A stretch of 64,000 nucleotides of DNA from Galbibacter sp. BG1 (GTDB taxonomy: Bacteria > Bacteroidota > Bacteroidia > Flavobacteriales > Flavobacteriaceae): NCBI RefSeq assembly GCF_013391805.1, contig NZ_CP058364.1, forward strand, positions 3,353,501-3,417,500, written 5' to 3'. Shown in pieces: positions 55,349-64,000 of the stretch (position 1 is its first letter; each line of letters opens with the position of its first letter). Under the pieces are notes generated by a model, which made no database searches, was not told the origin of the DNA, and saw nothing but the letters and a program-made list of their open reading frames with translations. Both the position numbers and the translations under genes were made by a program.

Positions 55349-56896
55349 ATGAATGAGATAAAGATACTTTGGGTAGATGACGAAATTGAGCTTTTAAAAC
55401 CGCATATTCTATTCTTGGAACAAAAAAATTATGCTGTAAAAACGTGTCAAAGTGGAACGGAAGCTGTTGAAGAGGTAAAACAAAACGTGTTCGATATCGT
55501 TTTTTTGGATGAAAATATGCCGGGATTATCTGGACTGGAAACACTTAACGAAATTAAGGCCATGAAACCCACACTTCCTGTAGTTATGATAACAAAAAGT
55601 GAGGAAGAAGATATTATGGAAGAAGCTATTGGCGCTAAAATTGCCGATTACCTCATAAAACCGGTTAATCCCAACCAAATTCTATTAAGTCTTAAAAAAA
55701 ACTTAGACCACTCCAGGTTGGTTTCAGAAAAAACCACCTCCAATTACCAACAGGAATTTAGGAAAATTGCCATGGATCTTACTATGGTAAATACTTATGA
55801 AGAATGGGTAGATTTATACAAGAAATTAATCTTCTGGGAACTTGAGCTTGAGAACATTGAAGATACCGGGATGACCGAAATATTAGAATCCCAAAAAACT
55901 GAAGCGAACTCCCAGTTTGGAAAATTCATAGAGAAAAACTATCCCTCTTGGTTTAATGGTGAGGAGGCGCCTACCATGTCTCACACGCTATTTAAAGATT
56001 TAGTAGTAAAAGAAATAGACAAAAAGAAACCCACCCTTTTAGTAGTTATCGATAATTTAAGGTATGACCAATGGAAAGCCTTTGAAGGCACCGTTACCAA
56101 TTACTACAAAAAAGAAAAGGAAGAGGCCTATTTCAGCATTTTGCCTACGGCTACGCAATACGCAAGAAATGCTATTTTCTCCGGTTTAATGCCTTCTGAA
56201 ATGGAACGCTTACATCCAAAACTATGGAAGAACGATACCGATGAAGGTGGGAAGAATTTACATGAAGCAGATTTTCTTAAAGATCAAATTCGCAGACTGG
56301 GATTGGACATTACTTGGGAGTACCATAAAGTATCCAACTTAAAACTTGGTAAACAACTAGCACAAAACTTTAGATCGCAAAAAGAAAATGACCTTACTGT
56401 GGTAGTTTACAATTTTGTGGACATGCTTTCCCATTCTAAAACAGAAATGGAAGTTGTAAAAGAACTAGCTTCTAATGATAAGGCTTACCGTTCTTTAACC
56501 CAAAGTTGGTTTAAGAACTCACCGCTTTTAGATATCATTCAGCAAGCGCAACAATTGGGCTTTAAATTAATTATTACTACCGATCATGGTACCATTAATG
56601 TAAAGAATCCGTCTAAGGTAATAGGTGACCGGGATACAAGTTTAAACCTTAGGTATAAAACGGGCCGAAGTTTGTCTTATAGTGATAAAGAAGTATTTGG
56701 AGTTAAGAATCCGAAAGAAATTCATCTGCCCACTATAAACATGAGTAGTTCCTTTATTTTTGCCAAAAACGACATGTTCTTTGCTTACCCCAATAATTAT
56801 AATCATTACGTAAGCTATTATAAAAACACGTATCAACACGGCGGAGTCTCCTTGGAAGAAGTAATAATACCCTTTGCTGTGCTCAATCCGAAATAG
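55349..56896 (+). CDS. porX: T9SS response regulator PorX (receiver plus PglZ/alkaline-phosphatase-like domain)
   Basis: A 515-residue regulator. Residues 1-120 are a CheY-like receiver with the acidic pair D10/D11, the phosphorylation site D54 in FLDENMPG, and K104 in YLIKPVNP. From about 200 comes a PglZ-type alkaline-phosphatase superfamily domain with the metal ligands VVIDNLRYDQW, LPTATQYARNAIFSG, NFVDMLSHSK and TTDHGTI. Known PorX acts with the kinase PorY and a sigma factor to switch on type IX secretion genes and hydrolyses oligonucleotides. No porY is adjacent. It is divergent from the HD gene. Confidence 0.95.
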   Translation: MNEIKILWVDDEIELLKPHILFLEQKNYAVKTCQSGTEAVEEVKQNVFDIVFLDENMPGLSGLETLNEIKAMKPTLPVVMITKSEEEDIMEEAIGAKIADYLIKPVNPNQILLSLKKNLDHSRLVSEKTTSNYQQEFRKIAMDLTMVNTYEEWVDLYKKLIFWELELENIEDTGMTEILESQKTEANSQFGKFIEKNYPSWFNGEEAPTMSHTLFKDLVVKEIDKKKPTLLVVIDNLRYDQWKAFEGTVTNYYKKEKEEAYFSILPTATQYARNAIFSGLMPSEMERLHPKLWKNDTDEGGKNLHEADFLKDQIRRLGLDITWEYHKVSNLKLGKQLAQNFRSQKENDLTVVVYNFVDMLSHSKTEMEVVKELASNDKAYRSLTQSWFKNSPLLDIIQQAQQLGFKLIITTDHGTINVKNPSKVIGDRDTSLNLRYKTGRSLSYSDKEVFGVKNPKEIHLPTINMSSSFIFAKNDMFFAYPNNYNHYVSYYKNTYQHGGVSLEEVIIPFAVLNPK

Positions 56897-57060
56897 GTAA
56901 CATATTTATGCTATTCCTTATAGAAAACCTTATATCCGATGTACGGTTAATATTATAAGTCTAACGACACATAAATGTTAATTTTTTGCAAAAATGTTAA
57001 AATGAGGTGTTTAGATTGAGTTTTTTTTCTATTTTTGATAAACCCTCAAAATTAACACTA

Positions 57061-57450
57061 ATGGCAAAAGCAATTGATAGAATTTATTCTATTATCCAAT
57101 CACTTGGAATGAGCGCTAGGCAATTTGATATGTCTATAGGCGCATCTAACGGTTACACTTTACGTATGAAAAAGAATCACGCCTCTGTGGGAAGTGATAT
57201 TCTGGAACGTATTGTAGAGAAGTATCCATTTGTAAACATTAACTGGGTAGTTACTGGTCATGGTACTATGTTTGGCACCGATACCACGAGTACGGCAGAA
57301 CAAGGAGTACCAGAAAGAAAACTTACCTATAAAGAAGTAGAAGCTATAATCGAACAAAAGATTAAAGCGCATCAAGAAGATGAATTAAATAATTTGATGT
57401 CTAAAATTAAACAAGAAATCAGTGCAGCTAAAAAAGAAGCTGAGCAATAA
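57061..57450 (+). CDS. Small helix-turn-helix (XRE-like) DNA-binding protein
   Basis: A 129-residue protein starting MAKAIDRIYSIIQSLGMSARQFDMSIGASNG. The first 70 residues resemble a Cro/CI-type helix-turn-helix with the ending INWVVTGHGTMFG, frequent in flavobacterial phage-type regulators. The C-terminal about 50 residues form an acidic coiled coil (EVEAIIEQKIKAHQEDELNNL). A GTG start at 57007 would add 18 residues of low similarity and is less likely. It is followed by a terminator shared with the convergent membrane-protein gene. Confidence 0.8.
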   Translation: MAKAIDRIYSIIQSLGMSARQFDMSIGASNGYTLRMKKNHASVGSDILERIVEKYPFVNINWVVTGHGTMFGTDTTSTAEQGVPERKLTYKEVEAIIEQKIKAHQEDELNNLMSKIKQEISAAKKEAEQ

Positions 57451-57480: not shown

Positions 57481-57506
57481 AAACATCCGGGTCATTCCGG
57501 ATGTTT
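57481..57506. terminator. Bidirectional terminator overlapping a stop codon
   Basis: AAACATCCGG and CCGGATGTTT form a perfect 10-bp stem with a six-base loop; T-rich sequence follows on the plus strand. The minus-strand gene's last codons (His-Pro-Glu) and TGA lie in the right arm and loop. Confidence 0.85.
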
Positions 57507-58718
57507 TTGTTTTTGAAGCTCTGCATACAACAGCTCTAATTTGTTTAAATACTCTTGCGGCTCGTAAGAATCTTTATTTTTAATTAAGAGTTCAATTTCT
57601 TGCTTTGTGGCCGCTACCCTATTGCCATTTTCTTTTTCGGCCAAAAGCGCAACAATCTTAAAGGTTTCCACTTTTATTTTATCCTTTATTCTTTCTACTT
57701 TATGGTAATTATCAATTTTTAGGGATATCCAAATTAGAAACCCTGTAAGAATTATTAGAATAGGAAGTGCCTGCCATATTTCATTTTCGTGAATATATCT
57801 AACGTCAGGGCTTAAGAGTGAAATTAACTGATAAGCTGTAAGCACTATTGGAATTAGTATGAAGTATTTCCACCAGTATCTGGAAGTAAGAAACCAGAGA
57901 TTTAAATTAATAAAAAAAGTTAGATAAAAGTACGTAAAAAACCAGAAAAAAAATTTTACATTAGGTAGATTATACGAACCAATAGTGAACCAACCTAGTT
58001 GCCAAGTAGCCGTTTCAGGTGCTATATAATATATACGATCTATGAATGGGGTGGCAACAAAAGCAGAAATCAAAATAATACCTAAAAAAACTGCTAATGA
58101 GTTATTTTGTGACCAAGTATTATTTTTTTTAAATTCAGATTCATCTATGGACTGAAGTAATTCAATAATTTTTTGTTTTTTAGGATATTCCCTAGCATCC
58201 CTAATCAACTCTTCAAGTGAAATTAATATATTTTGATAATGATATATATTTTGAAATTTATAATTTAAAACTATTTCTGAATTCATATAATCTTCATTTA
58301 AACGATACCTAAAGGAATATTTAAGCTTCCTTGAAGCCATGATTATTAGAATTAAAAAAATCACACTCAATACATAAATTAAATATTCAGGTGCGGAAAA
58401 TGGCAGTTCTATATAATTATAGATAACAATGAACAATTTATACAATTCATTCGAAATAAGAATTAATACCCCGTATCTCCACCATTGATTGGAAGTGATG
58501 TACCAAAGTGTGTAGGGGATTAAGTGAGAAAAAAGTAAGCATGAAGAATAAACAGCATATTGAACCGTAGTTGTATCTTTTGACCTCAAGGTAAACAAAG
58601 TTGTTTCCCAAAGCTGAGAATCAGGAAGATAAACATGAATATATGTGATAAAAGATGCAAACAGTAATAAGCTTACTATAATAATGTCAGATGGTAAAAC
58701 AGATTTTATTCTTTTCAT
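57492..58718 (-). CDS. Tandem 8-TM membrane protein family, copy 1 (unknown function)
   Basis: A 408-residue protein of a family I do not recognise, with about eight transmembrane helices in two similar halves. The N half carries VYLPDSQLW (29-37) and LWYITSNQWWRY (71-82); the C half carries YIAPETATW (231-239) and LWFLTSRYWWKY (274-285), an offset of about 203 residues. After the second signature comes RYIHENEIWQALP (307-319), then the last helix and a cytoplasmic charged coiled coil (about 336-408, VERIKDKIKVETFKIVALLAE). The linker between halves (about 135-205) is soluble. It lies 17 bp after copy 2 and ends in a terminator. Confidence 0.8.
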   Translation of the reverse strand: MKRIKSVLPSDIIIVSLLLFASFITYIHVYLPDSQLWETTLFTLRSKDTTTVQYAVYSSCLLFSHLIPYTLWYITSNQWWRYGVLILISNELYKLFIVIYNYIELPFSAPEYLIYVLSVIFLILIIMASRKLKYSFRYRLNEDYMNSEIVLNYKFQNIYHYQNILISLEELIRDAREYPKKQKIIELLQSIDESEFKKNNTWSQNNSLAVFLGIILISAFVATPFIDRIYYIAPETATWQLGWFTIGSYNLPNVKFFFWFFTYFYLTFFINLNLWFLTSRYWWKYFILIPIVLTAYQLISLLSPDVRYIHENEIWQALPILIILTGFLIWISLKIDNYHKVERIKDKIKVETFKIVALLAEKENGNRVAATKQEIELLIKNKDSYEPQEYLNKLELLYAELQKQKHPE

Positions 58719-58735
58719 TGAATTAAATTAAAAAT

Positions 58736-59953
58736 CTAATTTTCATTTTGAATTTTAGAAAGTTGATTATACAAATTTTCCAAACGGGAAAGATATTCTT
58801 CTGGTTGGTAGTTGTCTCTATTACTTATGGTTGCTTCAATTTCTTCCTTTAGCTGAACAGTTTTGCTCTCATTTTCACTTTCAGCCAACAACGCAACAAT
58901 CTTAAAGGTTTCCACCTTTATTTTTTCCTTGATTCTTTCTACTTTCGAGTAGTTGTTTATTTTTAGGGATATCCAGATTAAGAATCCAGTAAGTAATAAA
59001 AGTATGGGTAAAGCTTGTATAATTTCATTTTCGTGAATATAGCGAACATCAGGACTCAAAACGGATATTAATTCATAGGACGTCATAATTATTGGCACTA
59101 ATAAGAAATATTTCCACCAATATGTCGAAGTTAAAAACCATATATTCAAACTAATAAACATTGTTAAATATAAATAGGTGAAGAAATAAAAGAAGTTTAC
59201 CAAATCATTAAATTTACTATTGGAAAAAACAAACCACCCCAAGTCCCAAGATGATGATTCTGGCGCTAAATAATAAATACGATCTATAAAAGGGAGTGTT
59301 GTTATAATAAAGACAATAAAGAAATCTCTTAATCGGTAGTTGGAAGAAGAATCATTTTCTTTTTCTATTTCCTTGCTATCTGTAAGAACTACGGCCTCAG
59401 CAGTAATATCCCGAGCTTGTTGCAATCCTTTTCTGTAAACCGCATTCTCTAAATTATTTAAGAAATTTCGGAACTGCTTTACGCTCTTAAACTTATATTT
59501 TAAAATATTATCCGCATTTATATCATTTAATCTCAATTTATATTTCAGAGCATATTTAGCTCTACTGGAAATAAAAACAAGTATAAATCCAACTAAAACA
59601 GCTACGATAATTTTTTGGTAAATAGCCAATTTAAATGGAATTTCAATACTAAAAAACACATAGACAATCAGCTTGTAAACTGAACTTACGAAAGGAAGCA
59701 ATATTATATTTTTCCACCATTTATTACAGGTAATGTACCATAATGAGTAAAAAACAATATGAGAGAACAGTAAGGAAATATTGTAGTATGCCAATAACGC
59801 TGATACATTTATAACATTAATAGTAAATAGTCCCAAATCCAAAGTTTTCCCACTTGGAACATAAACATGTGTAAAAGTTATAAAGGAAGCTACCAATATT
59901 AAAACAATAATAAGTAGATCAATACGCAGAAATCTTTTCTTATTGGCAAACAA
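58736..59953 (-). CDS. Tandem 8-TM membrane protein family, copy 2 (unknown function)
   Basis: A 405-residue paralogue with the same order: helix 1 (about 11-30), LWYITCNKWWKN (71-82), soluble linker, IDRIYYLAPES, IWFLTSTYWWKYF, SPDVRYIHENEIIQALP, last helix and a cytoplasmic tail ending SRLENLYNQLSKIQNEN. Its 3' quarter is nearly identical at DNA level to copy 3, while the 5' two thirds have diverged strongly. It is followed by copy 1 and preceded by a broken copy remnant. No catalytic motif of a known family is visible; HENEI could be functional because it is invariant. Confidence 0.8.
   Translation of the reverse strand: MFANKKRFLRIDLLIIVLILVASFITFTHVYVPSGKTLDLGLFTINVINVSALLAYYNISLLFSHIVFYSLWYITCNKWWKNIILLPFVSSVYKLIVYVFFSIEIPFKLAIYQKIIVAVLVGFILVFISSRAKYALKYKLRLNDINADNILKYKFKSVKQFRNFLNNLENAVYRKGLQQARDITAEAVVLTDSKEIEKENDSSSNYRLRDFFIVFIITTLPFIDRIYYLAPESSSWDLGWFVFSNSKFNDLVNFFYFFTYLYLTMFISLNIWFLTSTYWWKYFLLVPIIMTSYELISVLSPDVRYIHENEIIQALPILLLLTGFLIWISLKINNYSKVERIKEKIKVETFKIVALLAESENESKTVQLKEEIEATISNRDNYQPEEYLSRLENLYNQLSKIQNEN
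58777..59050 (-). repeat. Long direct repeat (copy 2 partner of copy 3)
   Basis: The DNA encoding the last transmembrane helix and tail of copy 2 matches 60222-60495 of copy 3 at a constant offset of 1445 bp with scattered mismatches and one diverged patch of about 25 bp. Confidence 0.75.
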
Positions 59954-59995
59954 ATTGTAAAATTTTTGGGGTTAGGCTATCGCAATAATAGAAAT

Positions 59996-60121
59996 TTATT
60001 TTTGAATTGAATTTAGCTTTTTATAATAAAACTCAAGCTTAGACAAATATATATCGGGATCGTAGTTGTCTTTATTATCAAATAAATAATTAATCTCTAG
60101 CTTCGTTAAAAGATTTTCACT
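59996..60121 (-). pseudogene. Remnant of a further copy of the tandem membrane-protein family
   Basis: The minus strand between copies 2 and 3 encodes, with no start codon and with a stop just upstream, a 41-residue stretch beginning SENLLTKLEI and containing DNKDNYDPDIYLSKLEF, ending LNSIQK and a stop. It aligns with the C-terminal tail of the intact copies (for example NRDNYQPEEYLSRLEN and QLSKIQ). Everything upstream of the tail is missing. It is therefore a deletion remnant of a sixth member of the cluster. Confidence 0.78.
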
Positions 60122-60180
60122 TTAAGTAATTGAGACCGTTTAAATTTCTTAAAAGCTAAACATAAAATAAAACTAGAAGG

Positions 60181-61413
60181 TTAATTCTTATTCTGAAGTT
60201 TAGTTAGTTGTTCATATAGTATTTCCAAACGCGAAAGATATTCTTCTGGTTGGTAGTTGTCTCTATTGCTTATGGTTGCTTCAATTTCTTCCTTTAGCTC
60301 AACAGTTTTGCTCTCATTTTCCCTTTCAGCCAACAACGCAACAATCTTAAAGGTTTCCACCTTTATTTTTTCCTTTATCCTTTCTACTTTATGGTAATTG
60401 TCAATTTTCAGGGATATCCATATTAAGAACCCAGTAAGTAACAAAAGTATGGGTAAGGCTTGTATAATTTCATTTTCGTGAAAATAGCGGATATTTGGAT
60501 TTAAAACGGAGATGATTTCATAAAGCTTTATAATTATTGGTACTAGCAAAAAATATTTCCACCAATATTGATTTGTAAAAAACCATATATTTAGGCTTAA
60601 AAATACAGTACCATATAGATATAAAACAAAAAACAGAAATAAGCTGATGCTTGGAAAAAGGGCAGTTTCTAGTTTCAAGATTTCCAAATCCCAAACTGTT
60701 TCGTCAGGGGCTAAATAATAAGTTCTATCTATAAAGGGTATAAAAACCATTATAAGTAAGATTAAATAGCCCCATATCCTTTTTTCATTAAAATAATCTG
60801 ACATGGATGGCAAACCAAAAGATTTACCTTTTTTCTCCGTTATTGCAAAAGCTTCAGCTAGAACTTCTTTAACATTTGCCTGATTACTCAAAATATCTTT
60901 ATCATAAAATTGATCTAAAAACAATTGATAGCGCCCTAGACTTCTAAACTTATAATTAATTATACTTTCTGCACCAATGTTATCGTGTTTTTGCCTATAA
61001 AATAATGGATAAGAAATTGTTTTAGTGACACAGAATACTATTACGACAAAAAAGGCGATTCCTATATACTTTAGATAATCAGTATTATCTATGGTAAACT
61101 GAAAACTTTGGAATACATAGTTAAAAAACTTATAAGATTCATTAACCAGCAATATTATGATTCCATATTTCCACCAATACTTGCAAGTAAAGAACCAAAT
61201 TGCATAAAACATCATACTTGCAAAAAGCAATATAGAAGTATATAATGCCATATATACGGTAGTATTGCTTATAATTTTAAAGCCCAAATACGGAATCTCC
61301 CATTCTTTTTCATAAGGACTTAAAATGTATAGATATGTTATAAAAGTATTTAATAGAATGGATAAAATTATAAACCAATCATTTAGAAAAAACCTTTTAA
61401 TAAATGAATTCAA
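60181..61413 (-). CDS. Tandem 8-TM membrane protein family, copy 3 (unknown function)
   Basis: A 410-residue paralogue: helix 1 (about 13-32), YILSPYEKEW, IWFFTCKYWWKYG (72-84), then soluble linker, DRTYYLAPDETVWDLE, IWFFTNQYWWKYF, NPNIRYFHENEIIQALP, last helix and tail ending TKLQNKN. In the RYIHENEI element tyrosine-isoleucine is replaced by tyrosine-phenylalanine, but HENEI is retained. The 3' end is mosaic: most matches copy 2, but the KIDNYHKVERI patch matches copy 1. It lies 69 bp after copy 4. Confidence 0.8.
   Translation of the reverse strand: MNSFIKRFFLNDWFIILSILLNTFITYLYILSPYEKEWEIPYLGFKIISNTTVYMALYTSILLFASMMFYAIWFFTCKYWWKYGIIILLVNESYKFFNYVFQSFQFTIDNTDYLKYIGIAFFVVIVFCVTKTISYPLFYRQKHDNIGAESIINYKFRSLGRYQLFLDQFYDKDILSNQANVKEVLAEAFAITEKKGKSFGLPSMSDYFNEKRIWGYLILLIMVFIPFIDRTYYLAPDETVWDLEILKLETALFPSISLFLFFVLYLYGTVFLSLNIWFFTNQYWWKYFLLVPIIIKLYEIISVLNPNIRYFHENEIIQALPILLLLTGFLIWISLKIDNYHKVERIKEKIKVETFKIVALLAERENESKTVELKEEIEATISNRDNYQPEEYLSRLEILYEQLTKLQNKN
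60222..60495 (-). repeat. Long direct repeat (copy 3 partner of copy 2)
   Basis: Counterpart of 58777-59050. The two are the most similar stretches in the cluster and would support homologous recombination deleting the remnant-containing interval. Confidence 0.75.
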
Positions 61414-61482
61414 TGATATTTGTATTTAGATTTGAGGTAACAAAATTAGAAAAATAATAATCTCCGCATTGATTTAGGATTA

Positions 61483-62715
61483 CTATTTTAATGCGGAAAG
61501 TTTAGCGTAGAGTGTTTCCAATTTTTCTAGATATTCTTTTGGTTCGTAAGATTTCTTGTTTGAAATAATAGCATTAATCTCTATTTTTATAGAATGATGA
61601 TTAATTTTCTTTTCCTTTTCGAGGTCCGCTAAACTTTCGATCACCTTAAAAGTCTCTATTTTTATTTGTTCCTTAATACTCTCTATCTGTGTATGGTTGT
61701 CGATTTTAAAAGATATCCAAACTAAAAAAAGTGTTATCATAGAAAGTACAGGTAGTGCTTGCCAAATTTCATTCTCATGAATATATCTTTGATCTACATT
61801 CAGCACAGAAATTATTTCGTATAAGCTAAGTACTATTGGTACTAGTAAAAAATATTTCCACCAATACTTACTTGTAAAAAACCAAATGGTGAGACCAATT
61901 GACATCGTTAAATACATATAGGTTAAAAGCCAAAAGAATATAGCAAAATTGTTGTATTTACTCGTAGTAAGTGTTATCCAGCCTAAATTCCAAACATTAG
62001 AATTTGGTGCTATATAATAGATCCTATCTATTATAGGGAGCATGAATATGACAATAATTATTAAAATTCCTAAAATTTTAGATTTCAAGGAGTAATTCTT
62101 TCCTTCAATTTTGTTTTCAGTATTTGTTTTTTCATCATCTGATATCAAAATTGCGTTTGCTATAAGTTCTTGAGCGTTATTTATTTCTTTCGTTGTTATT
62201 ACACCCATAAAGTGATTAAGAAAATTTTTATATTGACTAATATTCTTAGTCCTATAGCGTAATATACTATCCGCATCGATATGATTATTTGAAATTTGAT
62301 ACCTGAATGGATAATTAATTTTTCTTGAAACTATGAATAAAATGAAGCTACTACCAATGGCAATGAATAAATTAGGATAAGTTCCCAAATGAATCGGTAA
62401 TTCAATACTAAAAAAAATAAATATCAATAGTTTATAAATCGATCCTGCGAATAAAACAAGTATACCATATTTCCACCAATAGGTACAAGTAATGTACCAA
62501 AGAGCATATAATAGTATATGAGAGAGAAAAATTGAAAGATGATAAGCTGATCCCTGAGCAGAACTATGCTCTGTAAATTTCATTACGAATAAACCTGTGT
62601 TCCAAGTTGGAGATTCAGGTACATACACATGAAAGAAGCTAAAAAAAGAGGCAAATAAAATAGTAGCAATTATGATGCTTTCTCGAAAATTGATACGATA
62701 ATGGGACAAAAGCAA
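61483..62715 (-). CDS. Tandem 8-TM membrane protein family, copy 4 (unknown function)
   Basis: A 410-residue paralogue, the first gene of the minus-strand array. The signatures are VYVPESPTWNTGLF (30-43), LWYITCTYWWKYG (72-84), IDRIYYIAPNSNVWNLGW, IWFFTSKYWWKYF and DQRYIHENEIWQALP. The tail is the most diverged (DNHTQIESIKEQIKIETFKVIESLAD). The N half resembles copies 1 and 2 more than copy 3. It is divergent from tsaE with a 143-bp AT-rich gap that must contain the promoters of both. Confidence 0.8.
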   Translation of the reverse strand: MLLSHYRINFRESIIIATILFASFFSFFHVYVPESPTWNTGLFVMKFTEHSSAQGSAYHLSIFLSHILLYALWYITCTYWWKYGILVLFAGSIYKLLIFIFFSIELPIHLGTYPNLFIAIGSSFILFIVSRKINYPFRYQISNNHIDADSILRYRTKNISQYKNFLNHFMGVITTKEINNAQELIANAILISDDEKTNTENKIEGKNYSLKSKILGILIIIVIFMLPIIDRIYYIAPNSNVWNLGWITLTTSKYNNFAIFFWLLTYMYLTMSIGLTIWFFTSKYWWKYFLLVPIVLSLYEIISVLNVDQRYIHENEIWQALPVLSMITLFLVWISFKIDNHTQIESIKEQIKIETFKVIESLADLEKEKKINHHSIKIEINAIISNKKSYEPKEYLEKLETLYAKLSALK

Positions 62716-62858
62716 TATAAAAAGTTTTTGATTAAAGTATAAATTTATAAAGTTTATCTAATCCATATCCAATTTCAAACGTTTTAATTTTAAATAAAAT
62801 TTGTTTTATTAAATAAGCTATTAATTTTTTTGAACTTAATTTTACAAAAAATCAGCAT

Positions 62859-63263
62859 ATGGTCTTAAAGTATAAAATTAATGAAATTACCAAGATAGCT
62901 AAGGAGCTACTTCAATATAGCCCTTATAAAATTATTCTATTCAATGGAGAAATGGGCGTTGGTAAAACTACCCTTATAAAAGAATTAATTTCTCAGTTAG
63001 GGAGTAAAGATCGGGTTTCTAGTCCGACTTTCTCTTTGGTGAATGAATATAAAATTAAAGACGGAATAGCATACCATTTTGACTTCTATCGAATAAACGA
63101 TATTGAAGAAGTTTACCAAATAGGTGTAGACGATTATCTATACAGTAATCAGTGGTGCTTTGTGGAATGGCCTGAAAAAGTGCAAGAAATACTACCGAAA
63201 AACGCTACCGTTGTCGATATAAAAAAACATTTAAACGATGAAAGAACAATAAGCGTTCAATAA
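62859..63263 (+). CDS. tsaE: tRNA N6-threonylcarbamoyladenosine biosynthesis ATPase TsaE
   Basis: The 134-residue P-loop ATPase partners TsaB and TsaD to make t6A37 on ANN-reading tRNAs. The Walker A GEMGVGKT is at 30-37, followed by the family stretch SSPTFSLVNEY, then YHFDFYRINDIEEV and the late CFVEWPEKV. Length and motif order are standard. A hairpin (CGTTATAT/ATATAACG) follows without a T-run. Confidence 0.97.
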   Translation: MVLKYKINEITKIAKELLQYSPYKIILFNGEMGVGKTTLIKELISQLGSKDRVSSPTFSLVNEYKIKDGIAYHFDFYRINDIEEVYQIGVDDYLYSNQWCFVEWPEKVQEILPKNATVVDIKKHLNDERTISVQ

Positions 63264-63265
63264 AA

Positions 63266-63290
63266 CGTTATATTTATAAACAATATAACG
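63266..63290. repeat. Hairpin after tsaE
   Basis: CGTTATAT and ATATAACG form an 8-bp perfect stem with a nine-base loop three bases after the tsaE stop codon. There is no following T-run, so terminator activity is doubtful. Confidence 0.5.
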
Positions 63291-63365
63291 ATAGAGAACT
63301 TTCTGTATATTAAAAACTTACGAATATACAACAAAGGTTTTTTATCTCCGCACCTTATTTTTTGG

Positions 63366-63373
63366 TACGTTTG
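63366..63373 (+). promoter_or_regulatory. Candidate -7 box for the small lipoprotein gene
   Basis: TACGTTTG matches TAnnTTTG and lies 31 bases before the start codon. No clear -33 element. Confidence 0.42.
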
Positions 63374-63404
63374 TTACAACAAAAAACCAAAAAATCATAC
63401 TATT

Positions 63405-63581
63405 ATGTCATTCAAAAAAATTATTTTCTCCGTATTCGCAATCGCTTTATTAGCTGTTTCTTTAGTTTCCTGTTCTCCAAGTAGTGTAGCAGATGAAGAT
63501 TCTTTATATGATTTAAATCAACAAGGAGTAACCGTAGAACAAATACAAAAACACAGGGAAGATGGTGGTAAACTTCATTAA
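63405..63581 (+). CDS. Small lipoprotein, 58 residues, unknown function
   Basis: A short frame not usually called: MSFKKIIFSV start, hydrophobic leader, and a lipobox SLVSC with C23. The mature part has only 36 residues, acidic then basic (EDSLYDLNQQG, EQIQKHREDGGKLH). It has a -7 box upstream and follows tsaE. I do not recognise a family. Its place between tsaE and a further copy of the membrane-protein family is suggestive but not proof of a link. Confidence 0.72.
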   Translation: MSFKKIIFSVFAIALLAVSLVSCSPSSVADEDSLYDLNQQGVTVEQIQKHREDGGKLH

Positions 63582-63712
63582 TTCTAAATGATTATTTAAT
63601 TTTGAACTTACAAATCAATTAAATAGTTGCAGATTGATAGAATTTATTTAATTTTAGAGGTTTGAATTTAAACTTATATCTCTTAGATTTAATTCTATCT
63701 TATCTTAGAATA

Positions 63713-64000
63713 ATGAAAAACCTAGATTCTTATCCAACCCGAAGCAGATTTTTAAAACATAGAATTTTAAGTATAGGTTCGATAGTTGCTCTTTTGATAG
63801 CTATCTCCCCATATCTGTATTACTTATATGAAAGTTTTCCAGAAAGTAAAGTTTGGGACACTATGTTATTTAAGTTCGAAGCTCAAAAATATGGATCTCT
63901 ATATTTATATGCTTGGTTTTTTCTGGGAAAATTTGTTCCTTTAATGCTTTTGACTCTCTGGTTTTTTACCTGTAAGCATTGGTGGTATCATGTCATTTTG
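63713..64000 (+). CDS. Tandem 8-TM membrane protein family, copy 5 (3' end outside window)
   Basis: The first 96 residues run off the window. The order is the same as in the tandem copies: a basic N-terminus, helix 1 (about 18-38), YESFPESKVWDTMLF (39-53), helix 2, and LWFFTCKHWWYH (82-93), the family signature with WW at 90-91. It is on the opposite strand to the array and is separated from it by tsaE and the small lipoprotein. It is the most diverged member visible. Whether it retains the second half cannot be seen. Confidence 0.72.
   Translation, partial: MKNLDSYPTRSRFLKHRILSIGSIVALLIAISPYLYYLYESFPESKVWDTMLFKFEAQKYGSLYLYAWFFLGKFVPLMLLTLWFFTCKHWWYHVIL

What the first reader, a model, noticed from the sequence alone, without database searches (positions are those of the whole stretch)
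57492..64000. Unrecognised family of paralogous multi-pass membrane proteins in a tandem array
Four adjacent minus-strand genes (57492-62715) and a fifth partial gene (from 63713, plus strand) encode related membrane proteins of about 405-410 residues. All share LW[YF]xTxxxWW; the four complete ones also share a second copy of it, RYxHENEI and a charged helical tail. I recognise no known transporter, kinase, channel or defence family. Local expansion with divergent N-terminal halves and conserved C-terminal ends suggests a modular sensor or receptor family under diversifying pressure, but this is inference.
Basis: partly seen in the sequence, partly recalled or inferred. Interest (0 to 1): 0.8.

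Follow-up and report, generated by a model that had tools for sequence, protein, structure and literature searches.

The report
Phage-related paired membrane-protein array
Four look-alike membrane proteins of a marine bacterium belong to a small module (membrane protein plus DNA-binding switch) that also sits in the dormancy-control region of viruses infecting its relatives, which suggests a viral device that bacteria kept, fused and multiplied.

Summary
The array is real. Each 405-410-residue protein is two fused copies of one four-helix membrane unit plus a charged tail. The 'fifth partial gene' is a complete 177-residue single unit (class I), found between tsaE and ald near porX in many Flavobacteriaceae. 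Family, PDB-sequence and fold searches gave no convincing relative.

Chromosomal class II units (tailed or doubled) lay tail-to-tail with a small CI/XRE-like HTH gene (here 57061-57450) in 44 of 44 distinct readable loci; four loci with only co-directional class I-type copies lacked it. The same order (membrane unit, small charged protein, convergent HTH) occurs beside the integrase of isolated Cellulophaga phage Ingeline and, without a detected integrase, in three prophage-like regions; two IMG/VR phages have a looser version. Profiles of the separate phage tail and of fused class II tails find each other, modestly.

Best reading: a lysogeny module shared by temperate phages and host chromosomes, where the tail fused to the unit, the unit doubled and arrays grew. 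Gene order and homology are shown; direction of transfer and function are inferred. Membrane exclusion of phages is slightly favoured over a membrane sensor controlling the HTH.

The parts
57492..58718 (-). class II two-unit membrane protein A (408 aa), nearest to the HTH gene, tail-to-tail with it (41 nt apart)
58736..59953 (-). class II two-unit membrane protein B (405 aa); AlphaFold2 model mean pLDDT 76.2
59999..60133 (-). degenerate relic of a class II C-terminal tail, with stops in the three frames read
60181..61413 (-). class II two-unit membrane protein C (410 aa); its tail-coding DNA is 90% identical to that of B against 51% in the N-half, with a 53-nt identical run (gene conversion or recent partial duplication)
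61483..62715 (-). class II two-unit membrane protein D (410 aa), outermost, divergent from tsaE
57061..57450 (+). small CI/XRE-like HTH protein (129 aa from the ATG; ORF open from 57007), convergent partner of the array
   Evidence: PHROG transcriptional-regulator match E about 1e-4 to 2e-4, no Pfam match; alignment A5; adjacency
57025..57051 (+). conserved leader of the HTH gene: TTTTCTA half-site, TAnnTTTG box (Bacteroidetes promoter element, recalled) and imperfect inverted repeat TTTTTGA-N-TCAAAA; candidate autoregulatory operator
   Evidence: motif chosen after seeing the sequences
63713..64000 (+). class I single-unit protein (177 aa, runs past the window end to position 64246)
62859..63263 (+). 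tsaE, syntenic landmark
   Evidence: PF02367 E 9e-38
55349..56896 (+). porX (T9SS response regulator), syntenic landmark
   Evidence: NF052313 E 1e-257

Best explanation
The array and its convergent HTH gene are a chromosomal version of a three-part lysogeny module of temperate flavobacterial phages: a four-helix inner-membrane protein (UNIT), a roughly 65-residue charged protein (TAIL) and a CI-like DNA-binding regulator (HTH) facing them tail-to-tail. In chromosomes TAIL is fused to the C-terminus of UNIT, in many lineages a second UNIT was fused in front, and local duplication, gene conversion and decay made arrays. Most likely function (inferred): as in lysogeny-region exclusion genes, the membrane protein keeps other phages from delivering DNA, with the fast-changing UNIT halves giving specificity; the slowly evolving HTH controls its own promoter and sets when the module is on, with the cytoplasmic tail as the probable contact between membrane protein and HTH. 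Shown: internal duplication, UNIT and HTH homology and shared gene order between phages and chromosomes, constant UNIT-HTH pairing, faster evolution of class II than of class I and HTH. Supported but weaker: TAIL homology. Inferred: direction (phage to chromosome), exclusion activity, HTH autoregulation, tail-HTH contact. My odds: phage-related module 0.85; exclusion as main role about 0.4.
For: Pairing, distinct chromosomal class II loci with a facing HTH: 11 of 11 relatives' loci, 4 of 4 at G161, G224, G258, G327, 7 of 7 Robertkochia and Eudoraea loci of the named scan (HTH at 13 of 13 loci there), 5 of 5 at G849, G805, G893, G789, G790, and 18 of 18 readable ones in 22 genomes taken only for having two or more UNIT matches; one of these is the Robertkochia sediminum contig again, so 44 of 44. 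One further two-unit gene (G842) ends at a contig edge and cannot be judged. Contrast: 4 loci with extra copies only of co-directional class I type (G033; G814, G974, G913) show no HTH. 19 of 23 measured junctions are 42 nt or less, several overlapping. Whole-genome HTH searches: homologs of at least 100 bits in 13 of 99 genomes, each at these loci, and in 7 of 395, the same 7 that have class II or two-unit genes there. Phage link: Cellulophaga phage Ingeline_1 has integrase(-), UNIT(+), 67-aa ORF15(+), HTH(-), then early genes; ORF15 matches the class II tail profile at E 1.3e-6 and its HTH the HTH profile at 97 bits, neither being in those profiles. L127, L285 and L287 have UNIT, separate TAIL, facing HTH and a primase with CHC2 zinc finger as in Ingeline. 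L226 and L228 (IMG/VR) have integrase, UNIT, small ORF and facing repressor-like HTH. A profile of three phage-type TAILs finds L287's TAIL (7e-11), one class II C-terminus (1.7e-5) and then a run of class II C-termini at E 0.012-0.1. HTH upstream regions hold 36 TTTTCTA/TAGAAAA in 24 sequences, 3.7 expected; class I upstream 1 in 15 (2.2 expected); class II upstream 8 in 25 (3.1 expected). Published phages carry exclusion genes between integrase and repressor (PMC7693887 passages; Ltp in the lysogeny module, PMC3952083 passages).
Against: The window copy has no integrase or other phage gene beside it. No integrase was found in the L127, L285 and L287 stretches by tblastn with five integrases. 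One phage record (L227) carries UNIT apart from any facing HTH. L226 and L228 regulators match the HTH profile only weakly (26.9 and 17.4 bits), and their small ORFs do not match the class II tail profile (E 0.35, 2.3, 6.8); L127's TAIL reaches only E 0.4. Of the window's own four proteins the phage-TAIL profile scores A at E 0.04 and C and D at about 6; B is not in the part of the list shown. UNIT runs opposite to the HTH, so it is not co-transcribed with the repressor. Two genomes (G001, G002) keep the HTH with no class II gene. Direction may be reversed: L226/L227 are sister to class I (89/83) and L228 nests in a chromosomal group (100/95). Not every gene in that phage position excludes phages: three such genes of phage Dub35A gave no resistance (PMC7693887). 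No PADLOC match. Nothing here shows phage exclusion.
Confidence: 0.45

Rival explanations
1. Membrane-coupled transcription switch: UNIT plus tail is a membrane receptor that holds or releases the CI-like HTH according to an envelope signal, as the membrane inhibitor does in LytTR regulatory systems. In phages it would set lysogeny against lysis; in chromosomes arrays of receptors would feed one regulator.
For: The HTH faces every readable chromosomal class II locus although no other phage gene remains, and it is the most conserved part; long C-terminal helices are predicted on UNIT; a motif enriched before HTH genes suggests autoregulation. LytTR systems show that such two-protein switches exist (PMC6193735, abstract and passages).
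Against: Convergent rather than operonic order; no predicted extracellular domain beyond a small hairpin; the candidate motif is at most slightly enriched before class II genes (8 against 3.1) and exact copies of the Galbibacter leader occur only at the HTH gene; tail-to-HTH contact untested; G001 and G002 keep the HTH without class II.
Confidence: 0.35
2. The HTH is only a repressor of the membrane genes or of itself, and the class II proteins do ordinary envelope work shared with class I next to porX (for example linked to type IX secretion or gliding); expansion is neutral birth and death.
For: Class I is syntenic in porX-tsaE-UNIT-ald in most fetched loci, UNIT is found in 261 of 378 family genomes, and class II copies in two Galbibacter species are broken.
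Against: UNIT with a facing HTH occurs in phages, away from porX and ald; class II evolves far faster than class I; one chromosomal module lies away from porX (G327).
Confidence: 0.15
3. Toxin-antitoxin or addiction module with a membrane toxin (UNIT) and an HTH antitoxin.
For: Small HTH-containing module present in phages and chromosomes, with decayed copies.
Against: TA pairs are usually co-directional operons (recalled); two genomes keep the HTH alone; arrays of four UNIT genes face one HTH (window; G991); no TA family match above cut-off (one sub-threshold HigB-like match, E 0.04, for the L285 TAIL).
Confidence: 0.05

Closest known systems
Superinfection-exclusion genes of phage lysogeny modules (lactococcal Sie, Streptococcus thermophilus Ltp)
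   Same: Phage relatives of UNIT lie between integrase and repressor-like HTH; membrane product; accessory to lysogeny
   Different: UNIT is a predicted multi-pass protein with no family match; it faces the regulator gene; chromosomal copies are fused, doubled and arrayed with no integrase; no exclusion activity shown
LytTR regulatory systems (HdrRM, BrsRM)
   Same: Soluble DNA-binding protein paired with a membrane protein
   Different: CI/XRE-like HTH rather than LytTR; convergent rather than regulator-first operon; inhibition untested
Cellulophaga phage Ingeline lysogeny region (MT732435, ORFs 11-16)
   Same: Integrase, UNIT, TAIL, HTH; homologous UNIT, TAIL and HTH in the same order and orientation
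   Different: TAIL is a separate gene and UNIT is single; annotated as hypothetical proteins

Membership tests
Superinfection-exclusion system | Encoded in the lysogeny region between integrase and repressor (window copy) | tested here: not met
   No integrase beside the array; neighbours are porX, tsaE, ald
Superinfection-exclusion system | Encoded in the lysogeny region between integrase and repressor (phage relatives) | tested here: met
   Ingeline, L226 and L228, that is 3 of the 4 phage genomes seen; not L227
Superinfection-exclusion system | Membrane-associated product | tested here: met
   By prediction only: four helices per unit; a hydropathy scan gave 6, 8, 7 and 8 segments in the four proteins
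Superinfection-exclusion system | Blocks DNA entry of other phages | not testable with these tools
   Needs infection assays
LytTR regulatory system | Regulator of the LytTR family | tested here: not met
   HTH matches phage regulator PHROGs; no LytTR match in Pfam, NCBIfam or PHROGs
LytTR regulatory system | Regulator and membrane protein in one operon, regulator first | tested here: not met
   Convergent genes at the 23 measured junctions
LytTR regulatory system | Membrane protein inhibits the regulator | not testable with these tools
   Needs genetics
Intact prophage (window locus) | Integrase and structural genes nearby | tested here: not met
   Neighbours are porX, tsaE, ald and lpx genes
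Known anti-phage defence systems (PADLOC) | Match to a system model | tested here: not met
   0 families at E up to 1 for 5 proteins
Known fold or solved relative | Significant structural or sequence match in PDB | tested here: inconclusive
   Foldseek best E 1.5 and 0.47; VIA-align best Z 5.6, rmsd 5.3 over 120 residues; models of moderate confidence; sequence searches empty or E 0.62

The most novel reading that the evidence does not exclude
Flavobacteria domesticated a phage lysogeny module into a chromosomal anti-phage array: tandem two-unit membrane proteins whose variable halves are re-assorted by duplication and gene conversion block different incoming phages, under one captured CI-like regulator.
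Probability: 0.3. Interest if true: 0.8.

Novelty: new variant of a known kind. Interest (0 to 1): 0.58.

Why it matters
It links an unnamed membrane-protein family, found in 261 of 378 sampled Flavobacteriaceae-family genomes, to the lysogeny region of a cultured flavophage, and shows plausible intermediate states: separate TAIL, fused tail, paired single units, fused double units, arrays. If it excludes phages it is a new chromosomal defence of viral origin in an ecologically important marine group, testable with an existing phage-host pair (Ingeline and Cellulophaga). If it is a sensor, it is a new membrane-coupled switch for a CI-like regulator.

Tried and rejected
Family and fold searches gave nothing convincing: Pfam, NCBIfam, PHROGs and PADLOC on the array proteins (best a PHROG of unknown function at E 0.044 over 32 residues); Pfam and NCBIfam on 33 class I rows, with scattered weak hits, the most repeated being NF041560 in 8 of 33 rows at best E 0.006, far under its cut-off; PDB sequences; Foldseek PDB and BFVD, best E 0.47 to 1.6; VIA-align best Z 5.6.

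Regulon search: the HTH leader pattern with up to 3 mismatches in 5 Galbibacter-group genomes gave counts much like the reversed control in most of them (G003 had 31 against 16); exact matches only at the HTH leader. Not used as evidence for a regulon.

Idea that the TAIL moved onto the HTH in G061: tail-profile scores are weak and compositionally biased. Not claimed.

Remote single UNITs as prophage relics: at first sight integrase- and tRNA-linked, but 22 of 26 such loci share a tRNA-Gly/tRNA-Leu pair and only 3 of 26 have a detected integrase, so I treat them as a third chromosomal locus.

Plasmids: no match. The first phage search with a two-unit protein was empty; single-unit queries were needed. 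Literature listings showed no title or abstract start about this module; four papers were opened, PMC6193735 (outline, abstract, passages) and PMC8776804, PMC3952083, PMC7693887 (passages). Most subscription journals are not in that library.

Caveats: genomes are related, so the co-occurrence p-values are only descriptive. The first tree has long branches (G027, G258, G032, G061), and G061's C-half falls outside the C-half clade. For the second tree all 26 N-halves and 13 further rows were left out. Searches list only part of their genomes or matches. In one search I fetched 40 stretches; one of them (G904, first stretch) showed only class I. Other genomes with two matches were not looked at. 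UNIT-HTH pairing was judged by profile and position in scripts whose HTH profile was built from 27 of these HTHs.
Full report
WHAT IS THERE. The window is G000:C1:3353501-3417500. The four array genes lie between porX plus a small HTH gene on one side and tsaE on the other. After tsaE comes the 'fifth' gene, complete at 177 aa, and then ald.

ARCHITECTURE. Aligning the halves of the four proteins with the 177-aa protein shows one repeated unit. A unit profile built without any N-half (A4) reports an N-half match in all 26 two-unit proteins tested: 56-70 bits for the window's four, only 7.7-13.9 bits for G258 and the three of G327 (63 sequences searched). AlphaFold2 models: single unit mean pLDDT 80.8, pTM 0.61, helices 11-41, 63-86, 92-110, 122-147 and 153-176 with a small hairpin at 47-56; double unit mean pLDDT 76.2, pTM 0.67, the same layout twice and long C-terminal helices. 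A hydropathy scan finds 6, 8, 7 and 8 segments; linker and tail carry 12-17 and 12-14 Lys+Arg while other loops carry 0-4. By the positive-inside rule (recalled) this puts the N-terminus, linker and tail in the cytoplasm; the WW motif would then lie at the inner face between helices 2 and 3 and the DE/HENEI loop outside (inference).

DISTRIBUTION. Single-unit queries find the family in 48 of 99 relatives and 261 of 378 family genomes. An order draw gives 32 of 395: 30 of the same family plus G061 and G075. A phylum draw gives 8 of 296, all of the same family. Class I sits in porX-tsaE-UNIT-ald in most fetched loci. In the tree of 89 units class I is one clade (99/86), 25 of 26 C-halves are one clade (98/85), the HTH-linked single units of G011, G050 and G014 are its neighbours (85/87), and N-halves lie apart on long branches.

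THE HTH PARTNER. Chromosomal class II genes (tail-bearing or two-unit, running against tsaE or ald) are faced tail-to-tail by a CI/XRE-like HTH ORF of 117-163 aa. Distinct loci: 11 of 11 among relatives, two of them with broken UNITs; 4 of 4 at G161, G224, G258 and G327; 7 of 7 Robertkochia and Eudoraea loci of the named scan, which had an HTH at 13 of 13 loci (5 repeat the relatives and 1 is the Muricauda prophage-like locus); 5 of 5 at G849, G805, G893, G789 and G790. Eighteen have class II genes with readable surroundings and 18 of 18 have the facing HTH (158-191 bits); one (G842) ends at the contig edge; three (G814, G974, G913) have only co-directional single units between tsaE and ald and no HTH, like G033. 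One of the 18 is the Robertkochia sediminum contig again, so the total is 44 of 44. My script's automatic test, limited to UNITs whose tail passed E 1e-3, scored 10 of 10; the other 8 were read from the printed order. G061 has a two-unit protein faced by a more distant HTH and is not counted. In whole genomes, HTH homologs of at least 100 bits are in 13 of 99: 11 with class II genes and two (G001, G002) with the HTH alone; and in 7 of 395, where G000's, G050's, G061's and other rows were part of the profile. Gaps at 23 junctions run from -18 to +244 nt, 19 of them 42 nt or less. In G327 three units come with one whole HTH and one HTH fragment, so the pair duplicated as a unit.

STEPS OF FUSION. 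G790 has four single units in a row before its HTH, with a tail detected (E 1e-3) on the second and fourth; G805, G893, G925 and G904 have two tail-bearing single units, G011 and G050 likewise. Galbibacter, Robertkochia, Eudoraea and others have fused double units; the window and G991 have arrays of four two-unit genes, G. mesophilus three. In the window, genes B and C share 90% of tail DNA against 51% in the N-half, with a 53-nt identical run, so partial gene conversion or recent partial duplication is likely. Decay is visible: the tail relic at 59999-60133, and broken copies in G. pacificus and G. orientalis.

PHAGE LINK. A scan of viral contigs found three phage records with UNIT. L226 and L228 have integrase, UNIT, a small ORF and a convergent repressor-like HTH; their small ORFs do not match the class II tail profile and their HTHs match only weakly. 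L227 has UNIT near a terminase. In cultured phages, single-unit queries hit 9 records, all Cellulophaga phage Ingeline. Its annotation reads integrase(-), hypothetical ORFs 12-15, HTH regulator(-), later a LuxR-family gene and DNA primase. The open frame over ORF14 extends upstream to 168 aa and is the UNIT. ORF15 (67 aa) matches the class II tail profile at E 1.3e-6, and the Ingeline HTH matches the HTH profile at 97 bits; neither was in those profiles. Three chromosomal regions (L127 Muricauda, L285, L287) show UNIT, separate TAIL, facing HTH and a 1012-1066-aa protein with a DnaG-type CHC2 zinc finger, as in Ingeline, so they look like Ingeline-type prophages, although no integrase was found in those stretches. 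The reverse profile test supports tail homology: L287's TAIL at 7e-11, the C-terminus of a G893 unit at 1.7e-5, then class II C-termini at E 0.012-0.1 ahead of other ORFs among 3876; single matches in that run are not significant by themselves. Ingeline was described as potentially temperate from its integrase and LuxR genes (PMC8776804, passages).

HOW IT MAY WORK. Some temperate phages carry genes between integrase and repressor that protect against other phages, and characterised lactococcal ones are commonly membrane-associated (PMC7693887, passages; the same paper found no resistance from three such genes of phage Dub35A). Ltp is a membrane-tethered exclusion protein of a lysogeny module (PMC3952083, passages). 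UNIT fits that place in phages. Class II evolves much faster than class I and the HTH in the same organisms (55 pairs: N-half 20%, C-half 26%, class I 46%, HTH 57%), as expected of an arms race but also of relaxed constraint. The HTH is kept at every readable class II locus, and HTH upstream regions are rich in TTTTCTA/TAGAAAA (36 in 24 sequences, 19 of 24 having it, 3.7 expected and at most 9 in 100 shuffles; class I 1 in 15). The motif was picked by eye, and the sequences are related within lineages, so this is supportive only. The alternative that UNIT-tail is a membrane receptor for the HTH, like LytTR systems (PMC6193735, abstract and passages), is almost as likely; constant pairing favours it, convergent order does not.

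LIMITS. Direction is open: L226/L227 are sister to class I (89/83), L228 nests in a chromosomal group (100/95), and Ingeline pairs with the Muricauda prophage-like copy (99/94). No expression, binding or infection data exist here. No structural relative was found, at moderate model confidence.

Noticed in passing
L265-L284, L286, L298-L302: A third chromosomal UNIT copy (162-189 aa, no tail detected) lies beside a tRNA-Gly/tRNA-Leu pair in 22 of 26 loci, often with an S24/XRE-type regulator a few kb away (16 of 26) and sometimes an integrase (3 of 26). Only L277 shows an HTH facing it, 52 bits and 1 kb away. Possible integration hotspot.
   Followed up: partly
L067 and L068 (G001, G002): Two genomes of the window's genus keep the HTH gene between porX and tsaE with only 111 and 139 nt to the tsaE ORF and no class II gene, so the HTH can outlive its partner.
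   Followed up: partly
L308, L309, L327, L083: Two or three co-directional class I-type units between tsaE and ald without any HTH: a separate, HTH-free way of expansion.
   Followed up: partly
L227 (IMG/VR 2511231122): A phage record carries UNIT near its terminase gene, followed by a 110-aa ORF, without a facing repressor in the stretch held.
   Followed up: no
L175, L176 (G161, G224): Three additional genes (738-780, 236-259 and 382 aa) separate porX from the HTH, so this region seems to accept insertions repeatedly.
   Followed up: no
L234:7396-7665 (Ingeline ORF12) and L127:9330-9584: A second small HTH-like ORF, similar by eye between phage Ingeline and the Muricauda prophage-like region, lies on the other side of UNIT.
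   Followed up: no
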